IMG/VR virus record: IMGVR_UViG_3300025154_000134
Span: 1 to 52,782 of that record
Length of the DNA stretch: 52,782 nt
Reading direction: 5' to 3' (one strand)
Origin: a virus
The notes beneath the pieces are model-generated. The model did no database searches and was not told where the DNA came from. It saw nothing but the letters and a program-made list of their open reading frames with translations. The position numbers and the translations under genes were made by a program. Below are positions 1-52,782 of the stretch, piece after piece. Positions within the stretch are counted from its first letter, which is position 1; each line of letters opens with the position of its first letter.

Positions 1-57
1 CACACGGCGCGGGTGTTGGGTGGGGGTGCGTCATGACTGACAACCCGCGCCGTGTGG
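1..57. repeat. Fold-back inverted repeat at contig start
   Basis: Bases 1-14 are the reverse complement of bases 44-57. Bases 1-8 do not match the equivalent position of the right-hand copy (52649-52656), whereas everything from base 9 does. The first eight bases therefore look like a fold-back artefact at the contig edge rather than phage sequence. Confidence 0.7.
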
Positions 58-134
58 AAATCTTGACGCAGTTCAAACAGCAGATCGAGGCCCCAACGTG
101 GCCGGAAGATACCGACGCTGAAGAGGCATTGATC
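9..134. repeat. Terminal direct repeat, left copy
   Basis: These 126 bases are identical to 52657-52782 at the right end. The right copy is entered through the end of the replication initiator gene and continues into the start of the helicase gene, so the two ends join without a break. This is what a circular assembly, or a terminally redundant or permuted phage genome, looks like. The repeat length may be set by the assembler and need not be a physical phage end. Confidence 0.95.
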
Positions 135-11198: not shown

Positions 11199-11221
11199 CA
11201 CTCGCGCCGCACCTCGCCCGC

Positions 11222-11250
11222 TTGACAATCTAACCATTAACGCCTATACT
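11222..11250 (+). promoter_or_regulatory. Strong sigma70-like promoter for the packaging/head genes
   Basis: A perfect TTGACA (11222-11227) and TATACT (11245-11250) are separated by 17 bp. Transcription would start near 11257 and enter the hairpin-rich leader and then the HGGxSP and terminase genes. The -10 and the TT that follows match those of the promoters at 6252 and 50497. Confidence 0.75.
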
Positions 11251-11280
11251 TGTCCTTAACGGATAGTGGTAGGCGTTTTT
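11239..11280 (+). terminator. Terminator-like inverted repeat overlapping the promoter
   Basis: AACGCCTA (11239-11246) pairs with TAGGCGTT (11270-11277), followed by a T-run. RNA coming from the phosphoesterase gene would contain both arms and could terminate here, while RNA starting at the overlapping promoter would contain only the second arm. The loop is long (23 nt), so the efficiency is uncertain. Confidence 0.4.
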
Positions 11281-11299
11281 GTCCCTCTCCTCCTGGTTA

Positions 11300-11502
11300 G
11301 GGGGCGCGACACCCTCTACGCGCCCCCGCAGTGAAACCGTTGGGGCGGCCCGCTATAAAATCGGCTCCTGAGTGCTCCTTGCGGGCGGCGGGCACTCGAA
11401 CGATGCGTATCTCCGTGCTGCGGCACGGTGAGAAGTGACGGGCTTTCCCGTCCAGGCGGCAATGGACCGCTACGGCTGGCGGGGCTGGCCGATAACAGCC
11501 CC
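11300..11502 (+). ncRNA. Five-hairpin structured leader upstream of terminase
   Basis: The gene-free stretch 11199-11609 holds five consecutive stems: GGGGGCGCG/CGCGCCCCC (11300-11308/11319-11327, 9 bp); GAGTGCTC/GGGCACTC (11370-11377/11390-11397, one G-U); CCGTGC/GCACGG with a tetraloop (11413-11428); GACGGG/CCCGTC with a CTTT loop (11437-11452); GGGGCTG/CAGCCCC (11481-11487/11496-11502). It follows a strong promoter and precedes the packaging genes. It may be a leader controlling late translation, a packaging site, or a packaging-associated RNA. No known family is recognised. Confidence 0.6.
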
Positions 11503-11609
11503 CAGCAGTTGCAGACTACCGGGCGCAGATAGGCGACGGTATTTTGTGCTATGTGCGATAGGTGAGTATGGCGAAAGCCTATGACGGTGACAGGTGAAAC
11601 AAAAACCCC

Positions 11610-12173
11610 ATGACGGTGAGGTGTGATGCAAAAACGCGGCGCGGCACGCCATGTCAACAGCCCGCCGGGTGGGGAACCAAACACGTCGGGGAAGGGCGCT
11701 GTAAATTGCACGGGGGTGCAAGTCCGCGCGGAGTTGAGTCCGCTAACTTCAAAACAGGGTTGTATGCTCAATATCTCCCCAGCAAGATCAACGACAAGGC
11801 GCGGGTGTTTCTGGAAGCCGATCCGCTCGAATTGGTGTCGGAAATGGCACTCTTGCGCGCCTTGTTGGCCGAATATGCTAGCCGTTTGCAAGACTTACCT
11901 ATCACCGCCCTTGACATTCAGCTTATGGCTGATCTTGCGGAACGCGTGGGGAGGTTCTCTGAGCGCATTAATAAAATGCGGAATGACACGGCCCTCACTG
12001 GCGCTGAAATGGTATATTTGGCGGCCCGCGTGGCCGATGTTGTGGTGAAATATATTGACGACCCAGATGAGCAGCGGCGTTTTGTCACAGAACTCTTGGG
12101 CCCAATTCCGAACGATGGTGTTGGGCAATTTGGACGCCAAAACAAGCAGGACGTTATCACGCTTTCCGGGTGA
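11610..12173 (+). CDS. HGGxSP-motif protein, probable small terminase-position protein
   Basis: The 187-residue protein has an N-terminal Cys/His module: CDAKTRRGTPCQQPAG, then GRCKLHGGASPRG. I know the C-x(n)-C...C-x-LHGG-x-SP pattern from proteins encoded just before large terminases. The rest is helical, with an acidic C-terminal half. Position suggests that it recognises phage DNA for packaging, but it lacks an obvious HTH of classical small terminases. It overlaps the start of the large terminase. Confidence 0.65.
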   Translation: MTVRCDAKTRRGTPCQQPAGWGTKHVGEGRCKLHGGASPRGVESANFKTGLYAQYLPSKINDKARVFLEADPLELVSEMALLRALLAEYASRLQDLPITALDIQLMADLAERVGRFSERINKMRNDTALTGAEMVYLAARVADVVVKYIDDPDEQRRFVTELLGPIPNDGVGQFGRQNKQDVITLSG

Positions 12174-13533
12174 TGACTTCGCCGCTTTCTGCCCGCAGCG
12201 TCTTGTCGTGCAAAACAAGGACGGCGCGCTTGCACCTTTACAACTGAATACCGTACAGCAGGCGCTTACCGGAGCACTCACCGGGCGCGACCTCGTGCTC
12301 AAGGCGCGGCACGTGGGTATCAGCACGGCGTTACAAGCCACGCTGTTTTGGCATACGCAGCGCGGCAACGTGCGGACGCTGACCCTCTGTCACGAGGACG
12401 ACTTGACGCAGGAAATCCGGGCGATGGTGGACAGGTTCTACAACAACCTGCCGGACCATTCGCCCGTGCGTAAGTTCGCCAACGCCACGTTGACCACCTA
12501 CCCGGAGCTAAATAGCCAAGCGCGTATCGCCACGGTGGGAGGCACGACGGGCAGCAAAAAGGGTCGCGGCGGCAGTGTGACGCATATCCACGGGTCTGAG
12601 GTCGCCTTCTGGCCGGATGCCGCCGGGGTCATGGCGGCGGCCATGCAGGCTGGACACCCGGCGATCTATTTGGAAAGCACGCCCAACGGCGCGCAGGGGT
12701 ATTTTTACACGCTGGTCATGGAAGCACTAGACGGCAACAGCGACTGGACGTTACACTTTTTCCCGTGGTGGATGGAGACAGATTACACGCTGCCCCTCAC
12801 CGACGGCGAGCCGCTTACACTGACGGACGAAGAGCAGGCGTTATGTGCGGCGCATGGCTTGACGCAGGAACAGATCAACTGGCGGCGGGCGAAACAGCGG
12901 GAACTCAAGCACCTGTTTATCCAGGAGTATCCCGAAGACCCGTTGTCGTGTTTCCTGCTGTCGGGGACGGGCTATTTTGGCGACCTGTCCAGCGTGTTTG
13001 TCGCGCCCACCGGGGCGGCTTATGACCCGGACCACCGGTATTATTGCGGGTTGGACTGGGGCCAGGCCAACGACTTCACCGCCGCGAGTGTGATCGACAA
13101 AACCGCGCTGGTGGAAGTAGAGGTGCTGCGGCTGAACAAATTACCGTGGTCGGAGATACGGCGTCAGGTGCGATTGTTGTGCGACCGCTGGCACTGCGAA
13201 ACCATCACGCCGGAAACGAATAGCATGGGGCCGAACATCGAAGAACTCTACCGGGAATTTGAAGTTGGGGAATGCGAGACGACCATCATCCCATTCACAA
13301 CGACCAACAATACGAAGTATGACGCGGCGGTGAATTTGTATGAGGCGCTGCACGAGGGTGGGTTGAAACTACTGCCGGACTCAGTGAGCAAGCGGGAACT
13401 CCTGGCCTTTCAGGCATCACAAACCTCGACGGGCCTCTGGCGCTTGGCGGCGGCAGAGGGGGAGCACGACGATACGGCGATCGCCAAACTGCTGGCGTGG
13501 GTAGGCACAACACGCGGAAGGGGATTTGTCTAA
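12115..13533 (+). CDS. terL: Terminase large subunit
   Basis: The 472-residue DNA-packaging motor has an ATPase domain with a Walker A of the KARHVGIST type near residue 63 and a Walker B-like HGSEVAFW near residue 160. An RNase H-like nuclease domain opens with YYCGLDWGQANDF near residue 311. ATG 12115 is the most likely start. The open frame reaches 12055 only through a TTG, and either way the gene overlaps the preceding stop. The protein would dock on the portal, translocate DNA with ATP and cut concatemers. The stop TAA shares a base with the next ATG. Confidence 0.88.
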   Translation: MVLGNLDAKTSRTLSRFPGDDFAAFCPQRLVVQNKDGALAPLQLNTVQQALTGALTGRDLVLKARHVGISTALQATLFWHTQRGNVRTLTLCHEDDLTQEIRAMVDRFYNNLPDHSPVRKFANATLTTYPELNSQARIATVGGTTGSKKGRGGSVTHIHGSEVAFWPDAAGVMAAAMQAGHPAIYLESTPNGAQGYFYTLVMEALDGNSDWTLHFFPWWMETDYTLPLTDGEPLTLTDEEQALCAAHGLTQEQINWRRAKQRELKHLFIQEYPEDPLSCFLLSGTGYFGDLSSVFVAPTGAAYDPDHRYYCGLDWGQANDFTAASVIDKTALVEVEVLRLNKLPWSEIRRQVRLLCDRWHCETITPETNSMGPNIEELYREFEVGECETTIIPFTTTNNTKYDAAVNLYEALHEGGLKLLPDSVSKRELLAFQASQTSTGLWRLAAAEGEHDDTAIAKLLAWVGTTRGRGFV

Positions 13534-34637: not shown

Positions 34638-35399
34638 TTATTGACTGCGAGTCCATTCAAAGAACACCTCAATACGCTGCGCAATCTGTTTTGCTTTGCG
34701 CGAGCCGTATTTGCGCGTCAACCACTTGAGAGGATCGTAGGCATTTTTGGACAGGTTACACGAACTGCACAGAGGAACCATGTTCGTTGGTACAGTGCCG
34801 GGATTTTCGGGGCGCGGATCAGACAATGCAATCCAGTGATCGAGATGAGGTTCAATTTCACCGAAGAGATCGCGCAAGGGCCTACTGCACACAGCGCAAT
34901 ACCCATGCCAATATTCCAAAGCGCGTCTATGGTCTGCGATAGAAAAGAAGAAAGGCACCTTTTGTTTTCTGGAACGACGCCGAAGCGCGGCTTGTTGATA
35001 TATTCCACGATTCTCTCGCCTGTGTCGGTCGTTATAGGCCTTTTTTGTCTCTCGGTGTTTTTGATATTTTTGACGATTTCGCTTGCGCATCTCTTCGATA
35101 TTGGCTGCATAGCGTTGACGGTCTTTTGCACGTTTTTTCTCTGGATTGGCATCGTAATTTCTCTTGCTTCTCTTGCGTTTTTCTATAACATCTTCTGGAT
35201 GGTCCGCGCGATATTTGCGAGCGATGTCGGGGTTATTGAAACGATATTGACGTCCGATTTTAACTTGGCAATCCTTGCATACAGATCGCAATTCATTTCG
35301 GCGACCTTTAAGCGCAAAAAATTCGTGCGTAGCGGCCTTAACTTCGCCGCACTTTGTGCAACGCTTGAAACCATCGGGGATCGTGGTATCATTGGTCAT
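34638..35399 (-). CDS. HNH homing endonuclease with N-terminal zinc finger (copy 1)
   Basis: The 253-residue protein reads opposite to its neighbours. It starts MTNDTTIPDGFKRCTKCGEV behind AAGGAG. The N-terminal CTKCGE...CKDC is a zinc finger. A long Arg/Lys-rich linker with repeats follows. The C-terminus is an HNH/McrA-type nuclease: YWHGYCAVC, HLDHWIALSDP, then NMVPLCSSCNLSKNAYDP. It is AT-rich compared with flanking genes and has a paralogue at 38982. It is a selfish gene inserted between tailspike and lysis genes. Confidence 0.85.
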   Translation of the reverse strand: MTNDTTIPDGFKRCTKCGEVKAATHEFFALKGRRNELRSVCKDCQVKIGRQYRFNNPDIARKYRADHPEDVIEKRKRSKRNYDANPEKKRAKDRQRYAANIEEMRKRNRQKYQKHRETKKAYNDRHRRENRGIYQQAALRRRSRKQKVPFFFSIADHRRALEYWHGYCAVCSRPLRDLFGEIEPHLDHWIALSDPRPENPGTVPTNMVPLCSSCNLSKNAYDPLKWLTRKYGSRKAKQIAQRIEVFFEWTRSQ

Positions 35400-35571
35400 G
35401 CTCTGTCTCCTTCGTAGACTGAGGGCCAGTGGGATTGCCGTCCGCGACTGGCACAATTATTTTACCATACACGAGGGAATAAGGAAAGGTTCAGCATGGC
35501 GTGTTAGGGCCGCGCCACACCGAACCTTCAACATCATTGTACATCTAAAGCCCTGGGAGCAGGGGAACTGT

Positions 35572-38981: not shown

Positions 38982-39761
38982 TCATTTCCCTACATTTTCT
39001 GTCATCCATTGGAAAAACTTTTCAACCTGAAGAATTATGGTGTTCGCGTTTCTTTTTCCGAACTTTTTAGTTATCCATACAACAGGATCACAGGCTTGTT
39101 TTGATTGATTACATGAACTGCAAAGCGGTATCATATTATCTTTAGTGGTGCCAGGGCAACGCGGATCGGAAAGAGCGATCCAGTGGTCCATATGCGGCTC
39201 AATATTTCCAAACAAATCTCGCAAGGGATTTCCACATGCAGCGCAGCAACCATGCCAATATTCCAAAGCGCGACCCTCGTCTTCTGAAGTAAAATTGCAT
39301 GGTAAAGCGGCGTGACGCGCATCTCGCCGTCTCTCTTGTGCTCTTCTCTTAAGAGGATTAGCTTTGGCCCACAAGCGATGTTGTTCTTTGGATTTTTCGC
39401 TATTCACCCTTTTATATTCTTTGGTGCGTGCAAGTATTCTAGTTTTGTTTTTTTCGTAGTGGCGTCTATTATTTTCTTTTTTCCGTTCAGGGTTATTTTT
39501 ATCCCATGAACGAGAAGTAGCACGACGAGTTTCTAGATAATCATTATTTAGAGAATGTTCTGAATGATATTGTTTTTTATATTCCCGGATTTTCGCGCGG
39601 TTTTCAGCATAATACTGTCTGTCATTTTTTTTGGAGCACTCACGGCACTCTGATCTAAGTCTACCTCGGTCAAGACGAAAATAATTAAGAGTGGACGGCT
39701 TTTCCTCGCCACATTGTGAACAACGCTTGTGTCCATTCAAATTTGAAGTATTATTAGACAT
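38982..39761 (-). CDS. HNH homing endonuclease with N-terminal zinc finger (copy 2)
   Basis: The 259-residue protein (MSNNTSNLNGHKRCSQCGEE) is a paralogue of the gene at 34638. It shares the zinc finger (CSQCGE...CREC), the basic linker, YWHGCCAACGNPLRDLFG, HMDHWIALSDP and MIPLCSSCNQSKQACDP. It has a strong AAGGAGGTG ribosome-binding site. It is markedly AT-rich, pointing to recent arrival from another genome. It separates the rightward lysis genes from the leftward early operon. Confidence 0.85.
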   Translation of the reverse strand: MSNNTSNLNGHKRCSQCGEEKPSTLNYFRLDRGRLRSECRECSKKNDRQYYAENRAKIREYKKQYHSEHSLNNDYLETRRATSRSWDKNNPERKKENNRRHYEKNKTRILARTKEYKRVNSEKSKEQHRLWAKANPLKRRAQERRRDARHAALPCNFTSEDEGRALEYWHGCCAACGNPLRDLFGNIEPHMDHWIALSDPRCPGTTKDNMIPLCSSCNQSKQACDPVVWITKKFGKRNANTIILQVEKFFQWMTENVGK

Positions 39762-46935: not shown

Positions 46936-47358
46936 CTAATTGTTAGGGTATCGACTTCGCAGCAGTTGCATTCCCTGAGATCTGCCATAATTTTTGCTGT
47001 TCGCTATGTACTTGTCATTCCGTAGAGGTGCACCGTGGTTGTGCAGTTTCACAATCCAGAATCGTTCTCGCTGGTGGGCCTGTTGGTATGGCACTGTCTC
47101 AATAACAACTAACACTGGCCGCAGCCTCGCTTCTAATAATTCGCGTATCCACAGCGCCAGCTTTGGGCTTGCAACATACGGTTTTTTAACGCACATGTGG
47201 CTTATCATCCGCCCCTTGGGATTAATAGTAACCCCCACATAACAAATTCTGCTGTCGCGCGGATCGACCAATGCATAGATAGTATGAGGTTTTGTCAGCA
47301 GGTTGTGCCGTCGGGTGTCAATTCCTTGTTGTATTGACGCGCTTGATCTTGTAGTCAT
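46936..47358 (-). CDS. GIY-YIG endonuclease
   Basis: The 140-residue protein has the family core: PHTIYALVDPRDSRICYVGV (GIY and YIG elements as IYALVD...CYVGV), an Arg in NPKGRMISHM, and a later ETVPYQQAHQRERFWI containing the expected Glu-rich region. It is probably a homing or free-standing mobile nuclease. It lies between the leftward operon promoter and the divergent regulator and has its own promoter. Confidence 0.75.
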   Translation of the reverse strand: MTTRSSASIQQGIDTRRHNLLTKPHTIYALVDPRDSRICYVGVTINPKGRMISHMCVKKPYVASPKLALWIRELLEARLRPVLVVIETVPYQQAHQRERFWIVKLHNHGAPLRNDKYIANSKNYGRSQGMQLLRSRYPNN

Positions 47359-47430: not shown

Positions 47431-47459
47431 TTGACAATCAGAACGGGATAGTTTAAAAT
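47431..47459 (+). promoter_or_regulatory. Rightward promoter for the regulator and Tas region
   Basis: TTGACA (47431-47436) and TAAAAT (47454-47459) are 17 bp apart on the plus strand. It lies back-to-back with the GIY-YIG promoter and would drive the gene at 47487 and probably the structured RNA and Tas gene beyond it. Confidence 0.75.
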
Positions 47460-47486: not shown

Positions 47487-47741
47487 ATGGGCGATGAATT
47501 GAGTTTTCGCGTTAGTTTCAGGCTCAATGGAAAGGCTGCACGAGCGTTCCTTGAGGAACAAAGCCGTATCTTGCGCCTGACAGGTTCAGCAGTACAGTCA
47601 GCCAAATCAACCCTCGGTGAAGCGGCTGCAATTGAATTTCTCAACAGGCGCGGTTATGACGTGCCGAAGTCCAGTACGAACTGGGGCGGTCGCCGCGAGG
47701 AACCCGAAACCGTCACCGTTCAGCAGGAGGTGCAGGCATGA
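47487..47741 (+). CDS. Probable ribbon-helix-helix-type regulator
   Basis: The 84-residue protein begins MGDELSFRVSFRLNGKAARA, a short strand followed by two helices (FLEEQSRILRLTGSAVQSAK; GEAAAIEFLNRRGYDVP), consistent with an Arc/CopG-like DNA-binding fold. GAAAGGAG precedes it. Its place at a divergent promoter pair with repeated sites suggests that it regulates the leftward and rightward early transcripts. The fold is inferred from pattern only. Confidence 0.5.
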   Translation: MGDELSFRVSFRLNGKAARAFLEEQSRILRLTGSAVQSAKSTLGEAAAIEFLNRRGYDVPKSSTNWGGRREEPETVTVQQEVQA

Positions 47742-47881
47742 AGCACATCGTTCCGCTCGTGATCGTGGTCGTCATGGCACTCGCCCCCGTGCGCGCGCCC
47801 AAGTCGCTGCCACCCGGCCCGCCCGACAGTGGCTGCGGCGGCATGGTTGACACGCCCGCGTGCGGGTACGCGGGGCCGTAA
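47738..47881 (+). CDS. 47-residue exported peptide
   Basis: The product starts MKHIVPLVIVVVMALAPVRA, a short signal peptide or membrane anchor, and ends with a small Cys-containing part (DSGCGGMVDTPACGYAGP) that could form one disulfide. AGGAGG precedes it and the ATG overlaps the previous stop. Function unknown. Confidence 0.5.
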   Translation: MKHIVPLVIVVVMALAPVRAPKSLPPGPPDSGCGGMVDTPACGYAGP

Positions 47882-47889
47882 ATTGACAT

Positions 47890-48032
47890 GCCCCCTGGCC
47901 CTGGCGGGTGTCCGCGTCAGAACACTGTCGGGCGGTTCGTGGTCTGCGCCGATGAGCCTGGCGAGTACGGACCAAAATAACGGACGGCTCCACGATACGC
48001 CGTCCGAGCGGGTTCGATCCCCGCAGGGGGCA
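47890..48032 (+). ncRNA. Expanded tRNA-like RNA
   Basis: GCCCCCT (47890-47896) pairs perfectly with AGGGGGC (48025-48031), a 7-bp acceptor-like stem. Directly inside its 3' strand is a perfect T-arm: GCGGG-TTCGATC-CCCGC (48008-48024). Before that is an 8-bp hairpin, CGGACGGC/GCCGTCCG (47981-47988/47999-48006), then GGTC/GACC enclosing CGCC/GGCG (47941-47973). At 143 nt it is too long for a normal tRNA, lacks an obvious anticodon and ends GCA rather than CCA. It could be an intron-bearing or degenerate tRNA, a tmRNA-like or other guide/regulatory RNA. Confidence 0.55.
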
Positions 48033-48094
48033 GCATACCAGTAGGGGGTGCGGTGACGAAAAGAGGATTAAGCCCGCACACACGATAGGCCCTT

Positions 48095-48192
48095 CACTCC
48101 CAGGAGTGGTCCCGTCCTGGCACAAAATGAGAGAAACGGGACACATGGATCGGCGGCGTGGTGGGAACACGCGCAGCAAGTTAACCGCTTGC
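48095..48192 (+). ncRNA. Hairpin cluster between the two tRNA-like elements
   Basis: Four stems follow one another: CACTC/GAGTG (48095-48108), GTCCCGT/ACGGGAC (48109-48115/48136-48142), GCGTG/CACGC with a 7-nt loop (48156-48172), and GCAAG/CTTGC with the 7-nt loop TTAACCG (48176-48192), which has the size of an anticodon arm. No protein frame convincingly covers 47882-48435. Confidence 0.45.
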
Positions 48193-48195
48193 GAA

Positions 48196-48288
48196 TTCGG
48201 TAGCTCAGCGGATAGAGCAGGGAATCGCAGACCCGAATGGTAATCGGGCAGTCGTTTCCACGCGCGGGTTCGACTCCGGCCCCGATCC
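48196..48288 (+). ncRNA. tRNA-like element with expanded anticodon arm
   Basis: TAGCTCAGCGGATAGAGCA is a textbook tRNA D-arm (stem 48203-48206/48215-48218). A T-arm, GCGGG-TTCGACT-CCGGC, is at 48264-48280 with one mismatch. Between them GGGAA/TTTCC (48220-48224/48255-48259) makes an anticodon-type stem, and inside that is a second 5-bp stem with a 7-nt loop, CCCGA-ATGGTAA-TCGGG (48232-48248). The acceptor stem pairs in only four of seven positions (TCGG/CCGA). It is therefore a degenerate, insertion-bearing or repurposed tRNA, not a standard one. Confidence 0.5.
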
Positions 48289-48291
48289 ACA

Positions 48292-48377
48292 GTGCTATCG
48301 CCGGGGCGTGGTGGGACCGGCAGCCGACTAGGATCGCAACCTGGCCGAGGAATGTGGGAAGCTGCTCGCGATAGCAC
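48292..48377 (+). ncRNA. Structured RNA closed by a 10-bp stem, before Tas
   Basis: GTGCTATCGC (48292-48301) is perfectly complementary to GCGATAGCAC (48368-48377), enclosing 66 nt. It ends about 58 nt before the ATG of the Nop/IS110-like gene, so it would form in that gene's leader. It could be a regulatory leader or a separate small RNA. Confidence 0.5.
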
Positions 48378-48435
48378 ACCCCGCGCCGCAGGGGGCATCT
48401 GCGGCACACACTCAGGAGAGGGAGAGGGTACAGAA

Positions 48436-49146
48436 ATGGACCAACCAGGAGACGTTGTATATAGCGATTCGGCTGCTGTTCTGGCGCGCGCGCTGGTGGA
48501 CCTGCGTGATCGCGTCATTCAGAAGACGCGCATACAGTTCAACAACCGCGTGGCCGCGATGGACCAGGAGCGCGACTCAGACGTTCATCAGGCTTTGATC
48601 CTCAAGTGGCACGCGCACTTTGAAGACCTCGAAAAAGCCCTGGACGCGGACATCGCCACCATTGCCGAATCCCTACCCATCGTGCAGGAGATGACCGCTG
48701 TCAAGGGCATTGGTACCATGTTGGCGGTCAAGGTGGCGGCGCTCATTGATATTGAGCGGGCAGATACCGTCTCGGCACTGTGGAAGTACGCCGGATATGG
48801 TGTGACCGAAGGGGCACGGGACCGCCTCGAAAAGGGCGAGAAAGCGCCCTACAACATCCGCCTGAAAACGACCTGTTTTCTGGTGGGCGAAAGTTTCATC
48901 AAGTGCAATTCGCCCTATCGCCGCATATACGATGAGGCCAAAGCGTTTTATGAAACAGCTCATCCCGACTGGACTCCGGGTCACCGGCACAATGCCGCAC
49001 GCCGGAAGATGATCAAGTTGTGGCTGTCTCATCTATGGGTGATCTGGCGCACGTTGGAAGGGTTGCCAGTCAGTGATCCCTACATCATCGCGGGGGATAA
49101 CAACCATCACCGGTACATTGGCCCTGAGCAGTTCGGCTGGGGTTAA
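48436..49146 (+). CDS. TasA-like protein: IS110/Nop-type RNA-binding domain, no nuclease
   Basis: The 236-residue protein starts MDQPGDVVYSDSAAVLARAL. I chose ATG 48436, with GGAGAGGGAGAGG upstream, over the longer frame through structured RNA. Residues 1-85 are helical. Residues about 85-215 carry MTAVKGIGTMLAVKVAALID, SALWKYAGYGVTEG, NIRLKTTCFLVGESFIKCNS and YRRIYDEAKAFYE, the helix-hairpin-helix pattern of IS110 Transposase_20 domains, which resemble Nop domains. The IS110 DEDD/RuvC domain is absent and the SKxGN catalytic-Ser region is replaced (EKAPYNIRLK). A 36-nt-period two-repeat array starts at its stop codon, as expected for the Tas protein of a TIGR-Tas system. It would bind guide RNAs and target DNA without cutting. 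A stray IS110-derived protein is the alternative. Confidence 0.75.
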   Translation: MDQPGDVVYSDSAAVLARALVDLRDRVIQKTRIQFNNRVAAMDQERDSDVHQALILKWHAHFEDLEKALDADIATIAESLPIVQEMTAVKGIGTMLAVKVAALIDIERADTVSALWKYAGYGVTEGARDRLEKGEKAPYNIRLKTTCFLVGESFIKCNSPYRRIYDEAKAFYETAHPDWTPGHRHNAARRKMIKLWLSHLWVIWRTLEGLPVSDPYIIAGDNNHHRYIGPEQFGWG

Positions 49147-49385
49147 GCCATGCTATCGGAGTAACCCAGCACTAATAAGCGAGCCGTGGAAAAAAAGGAA
49201 CCCATTCTTCGGAAGCGAGCCATGTTGACAGAGTAACCCATATATAGGAAGCGAGCCAGTTTCCTTAAGTAACCCAACCCGAATAAGCGAGCCGCAGTCT
49301 ATAAGGAACCCATCATTCAGAAGCGAGCCGAAGATACCAGAGCAACCCATAGAATCCGAGCGAGCCAACGGATACAAGAAGCCCA
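49142..49385 (+). repeat. TIGR-type array: two alternating 9-nt repeats, 36-nt period
   Basis: Repeat A, AAGCGAGCC, starts at 49177, 49213, 49249, 49285, 49321 and 49358 (the last GAGCGAGCC), with a weak copy ending at 49150. Repeat B, AGNAACCCA, starts at 49160, 49196, 49232, 49268, 49304, 49341 and 49377 (the last AGAAGCCCA). A-to-B variable segments are 10 nt (11 once), B-to-A segments 8 nt. Each unit is 36 nt with about 18 variable bases, enough for two 9-nt spacers. The final base of each 10-nt segment is always a purine, so the exact repeat edge is uncertain. Degenerate end repeats are typical of array termini. This is not CRISPR, since repeats are too short and of two kinds. Confidence 0.85.
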
Positions 49386-49427
49386 GTGACAGTAGAGCGC
49401 ATGACAGCACACCCCCAGGGGGACGCG

Positions 49428-50249
49428 ATGATCGACTACCTTGACACCGTGCAGCACATGGACGCGCTCGACCTCCTGCGTAGTCTGCCGGACGCGAGCG
49501 TGGATATGATTTTCACTGACCCGCCTTACGGCCACAACAACAACAACGGCGATCTTATTCAGCGCCGGGAACTGGCACTTGGAAAAGAAAAAGCAGTCCG
49601 TGAGTCTCGGCCAATACTGAACGATGGACCAGAAGCCAACGATCTGTTTTATCGGTTTTTGGGGGAAGCACAACGGGTGTTAAAACCGGGAGCCTGCTGC
49701 TGCTGCTGCTGCTGCGGCGGCGGCGGCCCCGATCCACAATTCGCACGGTGGACTCTGTGGATGGATGAAGTTATCGGATTTAAGCAGGCTGTAGTGTGGG
49801 ACAAAGGGCCAATGGGGATGGGGTGGCATTATCGCCGCAGTTATGAGTTTGTCCTGGTAGCGCAAAAACCCGGCGCGGCATGTAAATGGTATGACGTCAC
49901 CCGCGCGATTGAAAACATTATCCGACCCGGCAACGGGGCGTCGAAACAAATACCAGCCGAAAGCGATCATCCTACAAAGAAGCCGGTGGGGTTGGCAATG
50001 TGGTTTATCAGGTTGCACAGCCAACCCGGAGATATTGTATGCGATCCGTTTGCGGGCGGCGGTTCTACGCTAAAAGCGGCTCGATTGTTAGGGCGAAGGT
50101 TTATCGGGGCAGACTTGGACTTGTATTGGGTTGATTACACCCGCCGCGAATTACAGCAACCGTACACACCGCCGCTGTTCGACCTCGACGCGCCCGCGCC
50201 ACCCGCCGCCGCGCAGCTGCCGCTCATGGGCGAGGGGGACGCGCCATGA
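49428..50249 (+). CDS. DNA methyltransferase (DPPY) with poly-Cys tract
   Basis: The 273-residue enzyme has FTDPPYGHNNNNG near residue 28 (catalytic motif IV) and CDPFAGGGSTLKAARLLGR near residue 205 (AdoMet motif I), the beta-type order of N6-adenine or N4-cytosine methyltransferases. LKPG is followed by seven Cys and four Gly residues encoded by (TGC)7(GGC)4 at 49695-49727, then PDPQFARWTLWMDE. I recall related phage enzymes with the same Cys/Gly run, so it is probably real. ATG 49428 is chosen, with ATG 49401 an alternative. The gene starts 42 nt after the guide array. Confidence 0.82.
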   Translation: MIDYLDTVQHMDALDLLRSLPDASVDMIFTDPPYGHNNNNGDLIQRRELALGKEKAVRESRPILNDGPEANDLFYRFLGEAQRVLKPGACCCCCCCGGGGPDPQFARWTLWMDEVIGFKQAVVWDKGPMGMGWHYRRSYEFVLVAQKPGAACKWYDVTRAIENIIRPGNGASKQIPAESDHPTKKPVGLAMWFIRLHSQPGDIVCDPFAGGGSTLKAARLLGRRFIGADLDLYWVDYTRRELQQPYTPPLFDLDAPAPPAAAQLPLMGEGDAP

Positions 50250-51626: not shown

Positions 51627-52684
51627 GTGAAGAACGTCTTATTACGGTTCCAGACAACGCGCGTGGGTTTTACATCCCGCAAGAATACCTGGATATTTGT
51701 ATTCAAGAACGAGCGCGCAAAATATCCAAGGGCCAAAACAAAGGACAAATATCTACTTACCAAGAACAAGACGATGCAGCGGCGGCCATCTTGCGCATCT
51801 TGGAGCGGTGGACTGTCTGGAAAATGAAGCAGTCTAGCAAGGCCCAACCAGACGATCTGTGGATATTCCTTTCACAATCGATGCTGCAAGAGTGGGAACT
51901 GCTTAATGCCTACGGCGAGAGTAGGATCGCCAAAGGATGTGAGTTGTTAGTAGAGCGAGGGTTTGTTGAACGTCGCCGCAATCCAGTGGCATCTAAGCGA
52001 TGGGATCGAACATTTCAATACCGGTTTATGACCGACAACGTACAAGAAGCCGTAAACAATCTTCGCCCATACCTTAATATTAAGGAATGGATAGTTCAAT
52101 ATCAAGGAATGCATTCCTCAATATCAATGGATCGAAACTTTAATATTGAGGAAGCAATACCACAGATACCTTCACAGGAGTCTGCACAGATACCAGAACA
52201 ACAATCTTCTGCGCCTAGTGGCGCGGCGCAGGTTGAAACCCCTGCCAAAGAGATATCCCCCTTCAAGGAAATGCAGACATCCGTGGTCGAGTTGCTATTC
52301 AATGGAAACTGGACACAAGGTGATCGCGCGGGAGCAATCGCTCACATGCTGCTAGGTACATCCAACGAGCCAGCTTTCAAGAAATACAACCTTGAGAAAG
52401 CGACAACGCCGAATGAATTTCAGCGCGTTGTCGAAGCGTATCCACCAGACCTGACATTTCCAAGAGGCGCAGCGAAGATCAATCAGGCGGTATACGACTA
52501 CCGCCAACAACCAGAGGGTGAGGCGCAGCGTAAAACGACTGAACCGTCATCCGATCCAGAATACGAGCGCCTGACAACCTATAACCCAATCTTCGATACC
52601 ATGACGTTTGAGGAAATCCGCGCCTTTAAGGATAACCAGATGCTCGAAAATCTAGAGCGGGTGTTGGGTGGGGGTGCGTCATGA
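51623..52684 (+). CDS. Replication initiator, winged-helix, lambda-O-like role
   Basis: The 353-residue protein overlaps the nuclease stop and its own stop overlaps the helicase ATG on the circular map. Residues about 45-140 look like a winged helix-turn-helix (LSQSMLQEWELLNAYGESRI, AKGCELLVERGFVERRRNP). A flexible Gln/Ser-rich linker lies at 150-215, and a C-terminal domain follows that may contact the helicase. The linker-coding DNA holds AT-rich palindromes and repeated CAATAT motifs, as origins do inside initiator genes. The assignment rests on context and the wHTH pattern. Confidence 0.65.
   Translation: MSEERLITVPDNARGFYIPQEYLDICIQERARKISKGQNKGQISTYQEQDDAAAAILRILERWTVWKMKQSSKAQPDDLWIFLSQSMLQEWELLNAYGESRIAKGCELLVERGFVERRRNPVASKRWDRTFQYRFMTDNVQEAVNNLRPYLNIKEWIVQYQGMHSSISMDRNFNIEEAIPQIPSQESAQIPEQQSSAPSGAAQVETPAKEISPFKEMQTSVVELLFNGNWTQGDRAGAIAHMLLGTSNEPAFKKYNLEKATTPNEFQRVVEAYPPDLTFPRGAAKINQAVYDYRQQPEGEAQRKTTEPSSDPEYERLTTYNPIFDTMTFEEIRAFKDNQMLENLERVLGGGAS
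52072..52151. other. Candidate replication origin (iterons inside the initiator gene)
   Basis: This AT-rich stretch contains CCTTAATATTAAGG (52072-52085, perfect 14-bp palindrome), TTCAATATCAAGG (52095-52107), AGGAATGCATTCCT (52105-52118, perfect palindrome), CCTCAATATCAATGG (52116-52130) and the inverted TTAATATTGAGG (52140-52151). Four related [CT]AATAT[CT]AA boxes and two palindromes in 80 bp, inside the initiator gene and in GC-rich surroundings, look like a lambda-type origin. Confidence 0.6.
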
Positions 52685-52782
52685 CTGACAACCCGCGCCG
52701 TGTGGAAATCTTGACGCAGTTCAAACAGCAGATCGAGGCCCCAACGTGGCCGGAAGATACCGACGCTGAAGAGGCATTGATC
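52657..52782. repeat. Terminal direct repeat, right copy
   Basis: These bases are identical to 9-134 and contain the end of the initiator gene, its stop and the start of the helicase gene. They show that the helicase at the left end is the next gene after the initiator. Confidence 0.95.

What the first reader, a model, noticed from the sequence alone, without database searches (positions are those of the whole stretch)
47882..48435. About 550 bp of structured, apparently non-coding sequence upstream of tas
In this stretch I count at least ten stems, two of them in tRNA-like contexts, and no frame with protein character. The last structure (48292-48377, 10-bp closing stem) ends just before the tas ribosome-binding site. 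Such dense structure could be a set of small RNAs, a long leader controlling tas, or an RNA partner of the system analogous in position to the IS110 bridge RNA.
Basis: partly seen in the sequence, partly recalled or inferred. Interest (0 to 1): 0.75.

Follow-up and report, generated by a model that had tools for sequence, protein, structure and literature searches.

The report
Oversized tRNA-like phage RNAs upstream tas
The stretch holds two oversized RNAs built on a transfer-RNA frame but with a large variable insert where the codon-reading part should be; one belongs to a widespread, so far unnamed family found in dozens of phage genomes and is not part of the neighbouring TIGR-Tas system.

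Summary
The two "tRNA-like contexts" are real and are the key to the region; the "dense structure" as such is not unusual for this GC content. RNA1 (47889-48032) and RNA2 (48147-48288; its 5' end lies 47 nt upstream of Rfam's weak tRNA hit) each have a 7-8 bp acceptor-like closing stem next to a T-arm (a 1-nt bulge in RNA2), enclosing about 90-110 nt of other RNA. They are the only such hits in the 52.8 kb, both strands. RNA2 carries a D-arm-like hairpin, CG-GCGTG-GTGGGAA-CACGC, that led to 69 unique sequences, nearly all in other IMG/VR phage contigs. Acceptor and T stems covary strongly, the D-arm does not vary in sequence, and the central domain differs between subfamilies but has compensated hairpins within them. 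Rfam 15 and ARAGORN do not see them. Only one of 15 other Tas-coding phage loci carries the family, and nearly all family loci lack Tas, so this is neither a Tas guide nor a bridge-RNA analogue. The closest known RNA is phage T4 species 1 RNA (rnaC), tRNA-like, function unknown. Best reading: processed phage small RNAs on a tRNA-like frame with a structured cargo. Family identity is well supported; function is inferred.

The parts
47431..47459 (+). promoter-like site TTGACA-17-TAAAAT, candidate start of the transcription unit
   Evidence: 11 of 12 matches; consensus only; 1.2 sites expected by chance in the stretch
47738..47881 (+). 47-aa ORF with a signal-peptide-like start, ending 7 nt before RNA1
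   Evidence: sequence; no Pfam match
47889..48032 (+). RNA1: oversized tRNA-like RNA, 144 nt; closing stem TGCCCCCT 47889-47896 with AGGGGGCA 48025-48032, three long arms between
   Evidence: (z -2.8); no homologue found
48008..48024 (+). T-arm of RNA1, GCGGG-TTCGATC-CCCGC, flush with the closing stem
48147..48288 (+). RNA2: member of the oversized tRNA-like RNA family, 142 nt
48147..48153 (+). acceptor 5' strand of RNA2, GGATCGG, pairs with 48282-48288
48154..48172 (+). family signature: linker CG plus D-arm-like hairpin GCGTG-GTGGGAA-CACGC (hairpin 48156-48172)
   Evidence: compensated stem variant finds no member
48201..48219 (+). second, canonical-looking D-arm TAGCTCAGCGGATAGAGCA inside the cargo of RNA2
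48232..48248 (+). 5-bp/7-nt hairpin CCCGA-ATGGTAA-TCGGG resembling an anticodon arm (GGU); not a family feature
48264..48280 (+). T-arm of RNA2, GCGGG-TTCGACT-CCGGC (one G-G mismatch), one unpaired C before the acceptor
48282..48288 (+). acceptor 3' strand of RNA2, CCGATCC
48385..48405 (+). GC-rich hairpin GCCGCAGGGGGCATCTGCGGC just before the tas ribosome-binding site
   Evidence: z -4.5
48436..49146 (+). tas: nuclease-less Nop-domain (TasA-like) protein; neighbour, not part of the RNA family
   Evidence: (TasR 9mty E 1e-27, TasH E 2e-17)
49157..49386 (+). TIGR array, 36-37 nt period, edge AGCGAGCC and loop AGKAACCCA repeats

Best explanation
RNA1 and RNA2 are small non-coding RNAs of the phage on a tRNA-like frame: acceptor stem, D-arm-like hairpin (in RNA2) and T-arm form an elbow, and the anticodon domain is replaced by a variable structured cargo. 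RNA2 is a member of a widespread, unnamed family; RNA1 is an orphan of the same architecture. Most likely mechanism: they are cut out of an early phage transcript by host tRNA-processing enzymes (RNase P at the 5' end, RNase Z or exonucleases at the 3' end), accumulate as discrete RNAs like T4 species 1 RNA, and act through the cargo, while the sequence-invariant D-arm hairpin is read by a dedicated partner. Shown: architecture, covariation, family breadth, independence from Tas, conservation within cargo subfamilies. Inferred: transcription, processing, stability, partner, function.
For: 62 of 79 occurrences of the D-arm have a matching acceptor and T-arm, against 0.5 of 62 when acceptors are tried on other members' downstream DNA; a strict T-arm follows 55 of 79 against 2.6 expected. 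Covariation 0.615 against 0.128 shuffled and 0.05-0.09 slid; all 7 acceptor pairs and 4 of 5 T-stem pairs change on both sides (members were kept only if at least 6 of 7 acceptor pairs formed, so one search is the independent control). The linker CG, only half fixed by the search pattern, is intact in 67 of 69, and the free loop positions are nearly constant. A D-stem variant with one compensated pair finds only three places, none a member, so the sequence itself matters. Cargo subfamilies are 76-98% identical with compensated pairs while acceptors share as few as 5 of 14 bases. Sense-strand scan near members: 10 candidate further oversized hits (some overlap known members) and 6 tRNA-size hits; antisense control none. 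T4 rnaC has a perfect T-arm flush with a 5-of-7 closing stem and is seen on Northern blots (PMC9697503).
Against: No expression data. The D-arm was the bait, so its invariance is partly ascertainment. RNA1 has no detected homologue and rests on its own fold and ends. RNA2's T-stem has one mismatch and one unpaired C, so this copy may be weak. Few members encode CCA. Base -1 is U in only 28 of 69, so RNase P processing is plausible, not shown. No common cargo function or conserved neighbour gene was found.
Confidence: 0.55

Rival explanations
1. They are operon punctuation: tRNA-like elements whose only task is to direct RNase P and RNase Z cuts in a polycistronic phage transcript, the cargo being filler.
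For: The frame alone (acceptor, elbow) covaries; members lie in dense early-gene regions, and the recurrent real neighbours mostly run in the same direction.
Against: Cargo is conserved within subfamilies with compensated pairs while acceptors diverge, which filler would not show; a sequence-invariant D-arm is not needed for processing.
Confidence: 0.18
2. They are decoys: tRNA mimics made early to occupy a host tRNA-binding factor or a tRNA-directed anti-phage nuclease.
For: tRNA elbow without a canonical anticodon arm; found mainly in phages and prophage-like regions.
Against: No link with counter-defence genes was tested; cargo diversity and cargo conservation are not explained.
Confidence: 0.15
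3. They are real but aberrant tRNAs (class II, Ser-like D-arm) that still decode.
For: A tRNA-Ser of L245 has a similar D-arm, CGGCGTGGTGAGACACG; RNA2 holds a 7-nt loop with U33, GGU and A37; 13 of 69 members have a canonical tRNA within 2.5 kb.
Against: Only 7 of 69 members have such a loop (2.7 expected in shuffled cargo); ARAGORN finds none with or without introns; Rfam tRNA below threshold.
Confidence: 0.07
4. The stretch is an accessory RNA of TIGR-Tas (guide, tracr or bridge analogue) or a leader controlling tas.
For: Position; one other phage (L245/L322) has both, with a lone TIGR-like unit beside its tRNA-like RNAs.
Against: 15 of 16 other Tas loci and two isolate Tas phages have none; nearly all family loci lack Tas; the TIGR-Tas authors found no accessory RNA (PMC12045711); no TIGR unit in 47882-48435.
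Confidence: 0.05

Closest known systems
Bacteriophage T4 species 1 RNA (rnaC, 139 nt)
   Same: Phage-encoded non-coding RNA of the same size; perfect T-arm flush with a closing stem (5 of 7 pairs), long extra arms in place of the anticodon domain; function unknown.
   Different: No D-arm signature found in the T4 stretch with up to 4 substitutions; closing stem weaker; it lies inside a T4 tRNA cluster, whereas the window has no canonical tRNA.
tRNA (Rfam RF00005), class II tRNA-Ser/Leu
   Same: 7-bp acceptor, TTCRANY T-arm, D-arm-like hairpin with GGG in the loop.
   Different: Linker CG instead of the usual U8, 5-bp D stem of fixed sequence, no canonical anticodon arm family-wide, 14-195 nt of cargo.
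tmRNA
   Same: tRNA-like ends enclosing non-tRNA RNA.
   Different: Much smaller; no tmRNA match by ARAGORN or Rfam.
TIGR-Tas guide RNAs and IS110 bridge RNA
   Same: Position next to a Nop-domain gene.
   Different: No association across Tas loci; the system has its own 36-nt array downstream.

Membership tests
Oversized tRNA-like phage RNA family defined here | Signature CG-GCGTG-G(N)GGG(N)A-CACGC right after the acceptor | tested here: met
   RNA2: exact at 48154-48172. RNA1 lacks it and is not filed in the family.
Oversized tRNA-like phage RNA family defined here | Acceptor pairing adjacent to a TTCRANY T-arm | tested here: met
   RNA2: 7 of 7 acceptor pairs, one unpaired C, 4 of 5 T pairs; RNA1: 8 and 5 pairs, flush
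tRNA | Detection by ARAGORN or at the Rfam gathering threshold | tested here: not met
tRNA | Anticodon arm, 5 bp and 7-nt loop with U33 and purine 37 | tested here: not met
   7 of 69 members; RNA2 by itself has one such loop
tRNA | Aminoacylation and ribosome binding | not testable with these tools
   experiment needed
tmRNA | tmRNA covariance-model or ARAGORN match with tag frame | tested here: not met
T4 species 1 RNA-like | T-arm flush with a closing stem around an extended middle, about 100-150 nt | tested here: met
   architecture only, common descent not shown
T4 species 1 RNA-like | Accumulates as a discrete RNA | not testable with these tools
   shown for T4 only
TIGR-Tas accessory RNA or bridge-RNA analogue | Conserved presence with tas | tested here: not met
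TIGR-Tas (the neighbouring gene and array) | Nop-domain Tas protein plus array of alternating short repeats with 9-nt spacers | tested here: met

The most novel reading that the evidence does not exclude
A general phage RNA chassis: a tRNA-like elbow with a sequence-invariant D-arm read by a dedicated partner, onto which different structured cargoes are mounted, with acceptor stems that diversify rapidly; T4 species 1 RNA would be a distant example, and several RNAs of this kind can sit in one phage.
Probability: 0.35. Interest if true: 0.8.

Novelty: new variant of a known kind. Interest (0 to 1): 0.62.

Why it matters
T4's species 1 RNA is still described as of unknown function (PMC9697503). 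Here is a broad family with the same architecture, a sequence handle for finding members, natural variation in acceptors and conserved cargo domains, which makes the question testable by comparison and by pull-down. It also removes a false lead: the structured DNA before tas is not a TIGR-Tas component. Phage annotation misses these RNAs because ARAGORN and Rfam do not see them.

Tried and rejected
Rfam at gathering and permissive thresholds, whole window and relatives: only a sub-threshold tRNA hit at RNA2 and chance-level others. ARAGORN with introns: nothing in the region. BLASTN of the region against phages: no match; of family members against phages and plasmids: only short pieces such as tRNA T-arms and scattered matches. 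Tas by single-sequence pattern search in IMG/VR: no relative, solved with an alignment. Terminase relatives (up to 50% identical) carry no Tas, but one of them (G005) gave the first RNA2 homologue. The 8-nt-loop form of the motif in genome contigs: chiefly chance matches in genes, one convincing member by eye (L149, Acidisoma). Motif in sampled genomes: Chloroflexota 4 of 400 with 2 true members, Pseudomonadota 0 of 398, Actinomycetota 1 of 296 and not a member. Dense structure as evidence: rejected, ordinary for the GC. Conserved neighbour gene: none. Literature searches found no description of the family in the held library; the library lacks most subscription journals.

Full report
Setting. 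The window is a whole IMG/VR virus record; its ends overlap by about 126 identical bases, so it is probably a complete, circularly mapping genome. Directly downstream is a TIGR array with a 36-nt period, 9-nt spacers and two alternating repeats, as described for TIGR-Tas (PMC12045711).

Checking the observation. No frame over 47882-48435 looks like a gene. The fold of the whole stretch is ordinary for its composition (z -1.7 against shuffles; rank 26 of 95 stretches), so counting stems proves nothing. What is not ordinary is the pair of tRNA-like ends. RNA1 is closed by TGCCCCCT/AGGGGGCA with the T-arm GCGGG-TTCGATC-CCCGC flush against it; RNA2 by GGATCGG/CCGATCC with GCGGG-TTCGACT-CCGGC one base away. 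A detector for this arrangement finds these two places and no other on either strand, against 0.63 chance hits per shuffled window. Rfam's weak tRNA match had put the 5' end of RNA2 47 nt too far in.

Finding the family. A relative of this phage's terminase lies on a contig (G005) with a 27-nt match to the window shortly after two canonical tRNAs. It proved to be an RNA with the acceptor TGATCGG/CCGATCA, a compensated change of the first pair, and the hairpin GCGTG-GACGGGGA-CACGC. Scanning IMG/VR for that hairpin with an 8-nt loop gave 17 contigs; the 7-nt form present in the window gave 93 stretches. Reading out acceptor and T-arm gave 69 unique sequences, window RNA2 included, of roughly 65 to 245 nt. 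Up to three copies of the signature lie on one contig (L242). Two sampled Chloroflexota genomes hold true members, one of them (L338) among phage-like genes.

Evidence that it is a functional RNA family. On 43 distinct cores, 98.5% of cells pair, covariation is 0.615 against 0.128 in shuffles and 0.05-0.09 for slid structures, and every acceptor pair shows changes on both sides. Because members were kept by their pairing, the independent control is the exchange test: 62 of 79 occurrences have their own matching acceptor and T-arm, 0.5 of 62 when acceptors are matched to another member's DNA. The D-arm behaves differently: its free positions are nearly constant and a compensated stem variant occurs only three times in IMG/VR, never in this context, which points to recognition of sequence. 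The middle has no common fold and no canonical anticodon arm, but within subfamilies it is 76-98% identical, with compensated hairpin pairs, while acceptors diverge to 5 of 14 identical bases. Around members, the sense strand holds 10 candidate further oversized tRNA-like hits, window RNA1 among them (some overlap known members), and 6 tRNA-size ones; the antisense strand holds none.

Relation to Tas. If these RNAs served Tas they should travel with it. Among family loci, only one besides the window has a clear Tas gene (L245, 51% identical), about 4 kb downstream of its RNA cluster. Conversely, of 16 Tas loci on 15 other contigs recovered with an alignment plus two isolate phages, only that same contig (as L322) has the family, and none of the others has any tRNA-like RNA within the flank held, up to 10 kb each side. 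The bridge-RNA and leader readings are therefore not supported.

What it works like. T4 rnaC, 139 nt, has the T-arm CCGGG-TTCGAAT-CCCGG flush with a closing stem in which 5 of 7 positions pair, and long extra hairpins; it is seen on Northern blots and its function is unknown (PMC9697503). RNA1 and RNA2 share this plan. Membership of T4 rnaC in the signature family was tested and not met (no D-arm). From general knowledge of tRNA processing, an acceptor-T-arm elbow suits RNase P and RNase Z, so excision from an early transcript is the simplest route; a promoter-like site lies at 47431 upstream of the whole unit. These steps are inferred.

Verdict. Two small RNAs of tRNA-like architecture, one a member of a widespread unnamed phage RNA family; no link to the TIGR-Tas system beside them beyond position. 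The elements at 48292-48377 and 48385-48405 and the linker 48033-48146 have no comparative support and are left open.

Noticed in passing
L245:4594-4640: A lone TIGR-like unit (GGAGCC-9 nt-GAGTGAACCA-9 nt-AGCG) lies among tRNA-like RNAs, about 4.6 kb from the main TIGR array of the same phage.
   Followed up: partly
L080:13100-13731 (minus strand): tRNA-Leu-like genes that appear to hold an extra helix between D-arm and anticodon arm, missed by ARAGORN.
   Followed up: partly
L080 intergenic regions 11200-13100: Several other structured intergenic elements, two sharing GTGTAGGCAGTACGGC(T)AGGTAG; perhaps another phage RNA family.
   Followed up: no
L074, L078, L087: Relatives with the D-arm signature whose 3' hairpin loop is GGTAACGT or AGTAGCGC instead of TTCRANY; a possible second subclass, not counted in the 69.
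   Followed up: partly
window 34638-35456 and 38982-39761 (minus strand), 46936-47358 (minus strand): Two similar HNH-endonuclease-like ORFs (by eye) and one GIY-YIG protein (Pfam), possible homing endonucleases.
   Followed up: no
window 49690-49733: Run of CTG and CGG triplets inside the N6/N4 methyltransferase gene (Cys7-Gly4), unusual in a phage enzyme.
   Followed up: no
window 9-134 and 52657-52782: 126-base identical overlap of the record's two ends, so the genome is probably complete although the tool reports no completeness.
   Followed up: yes
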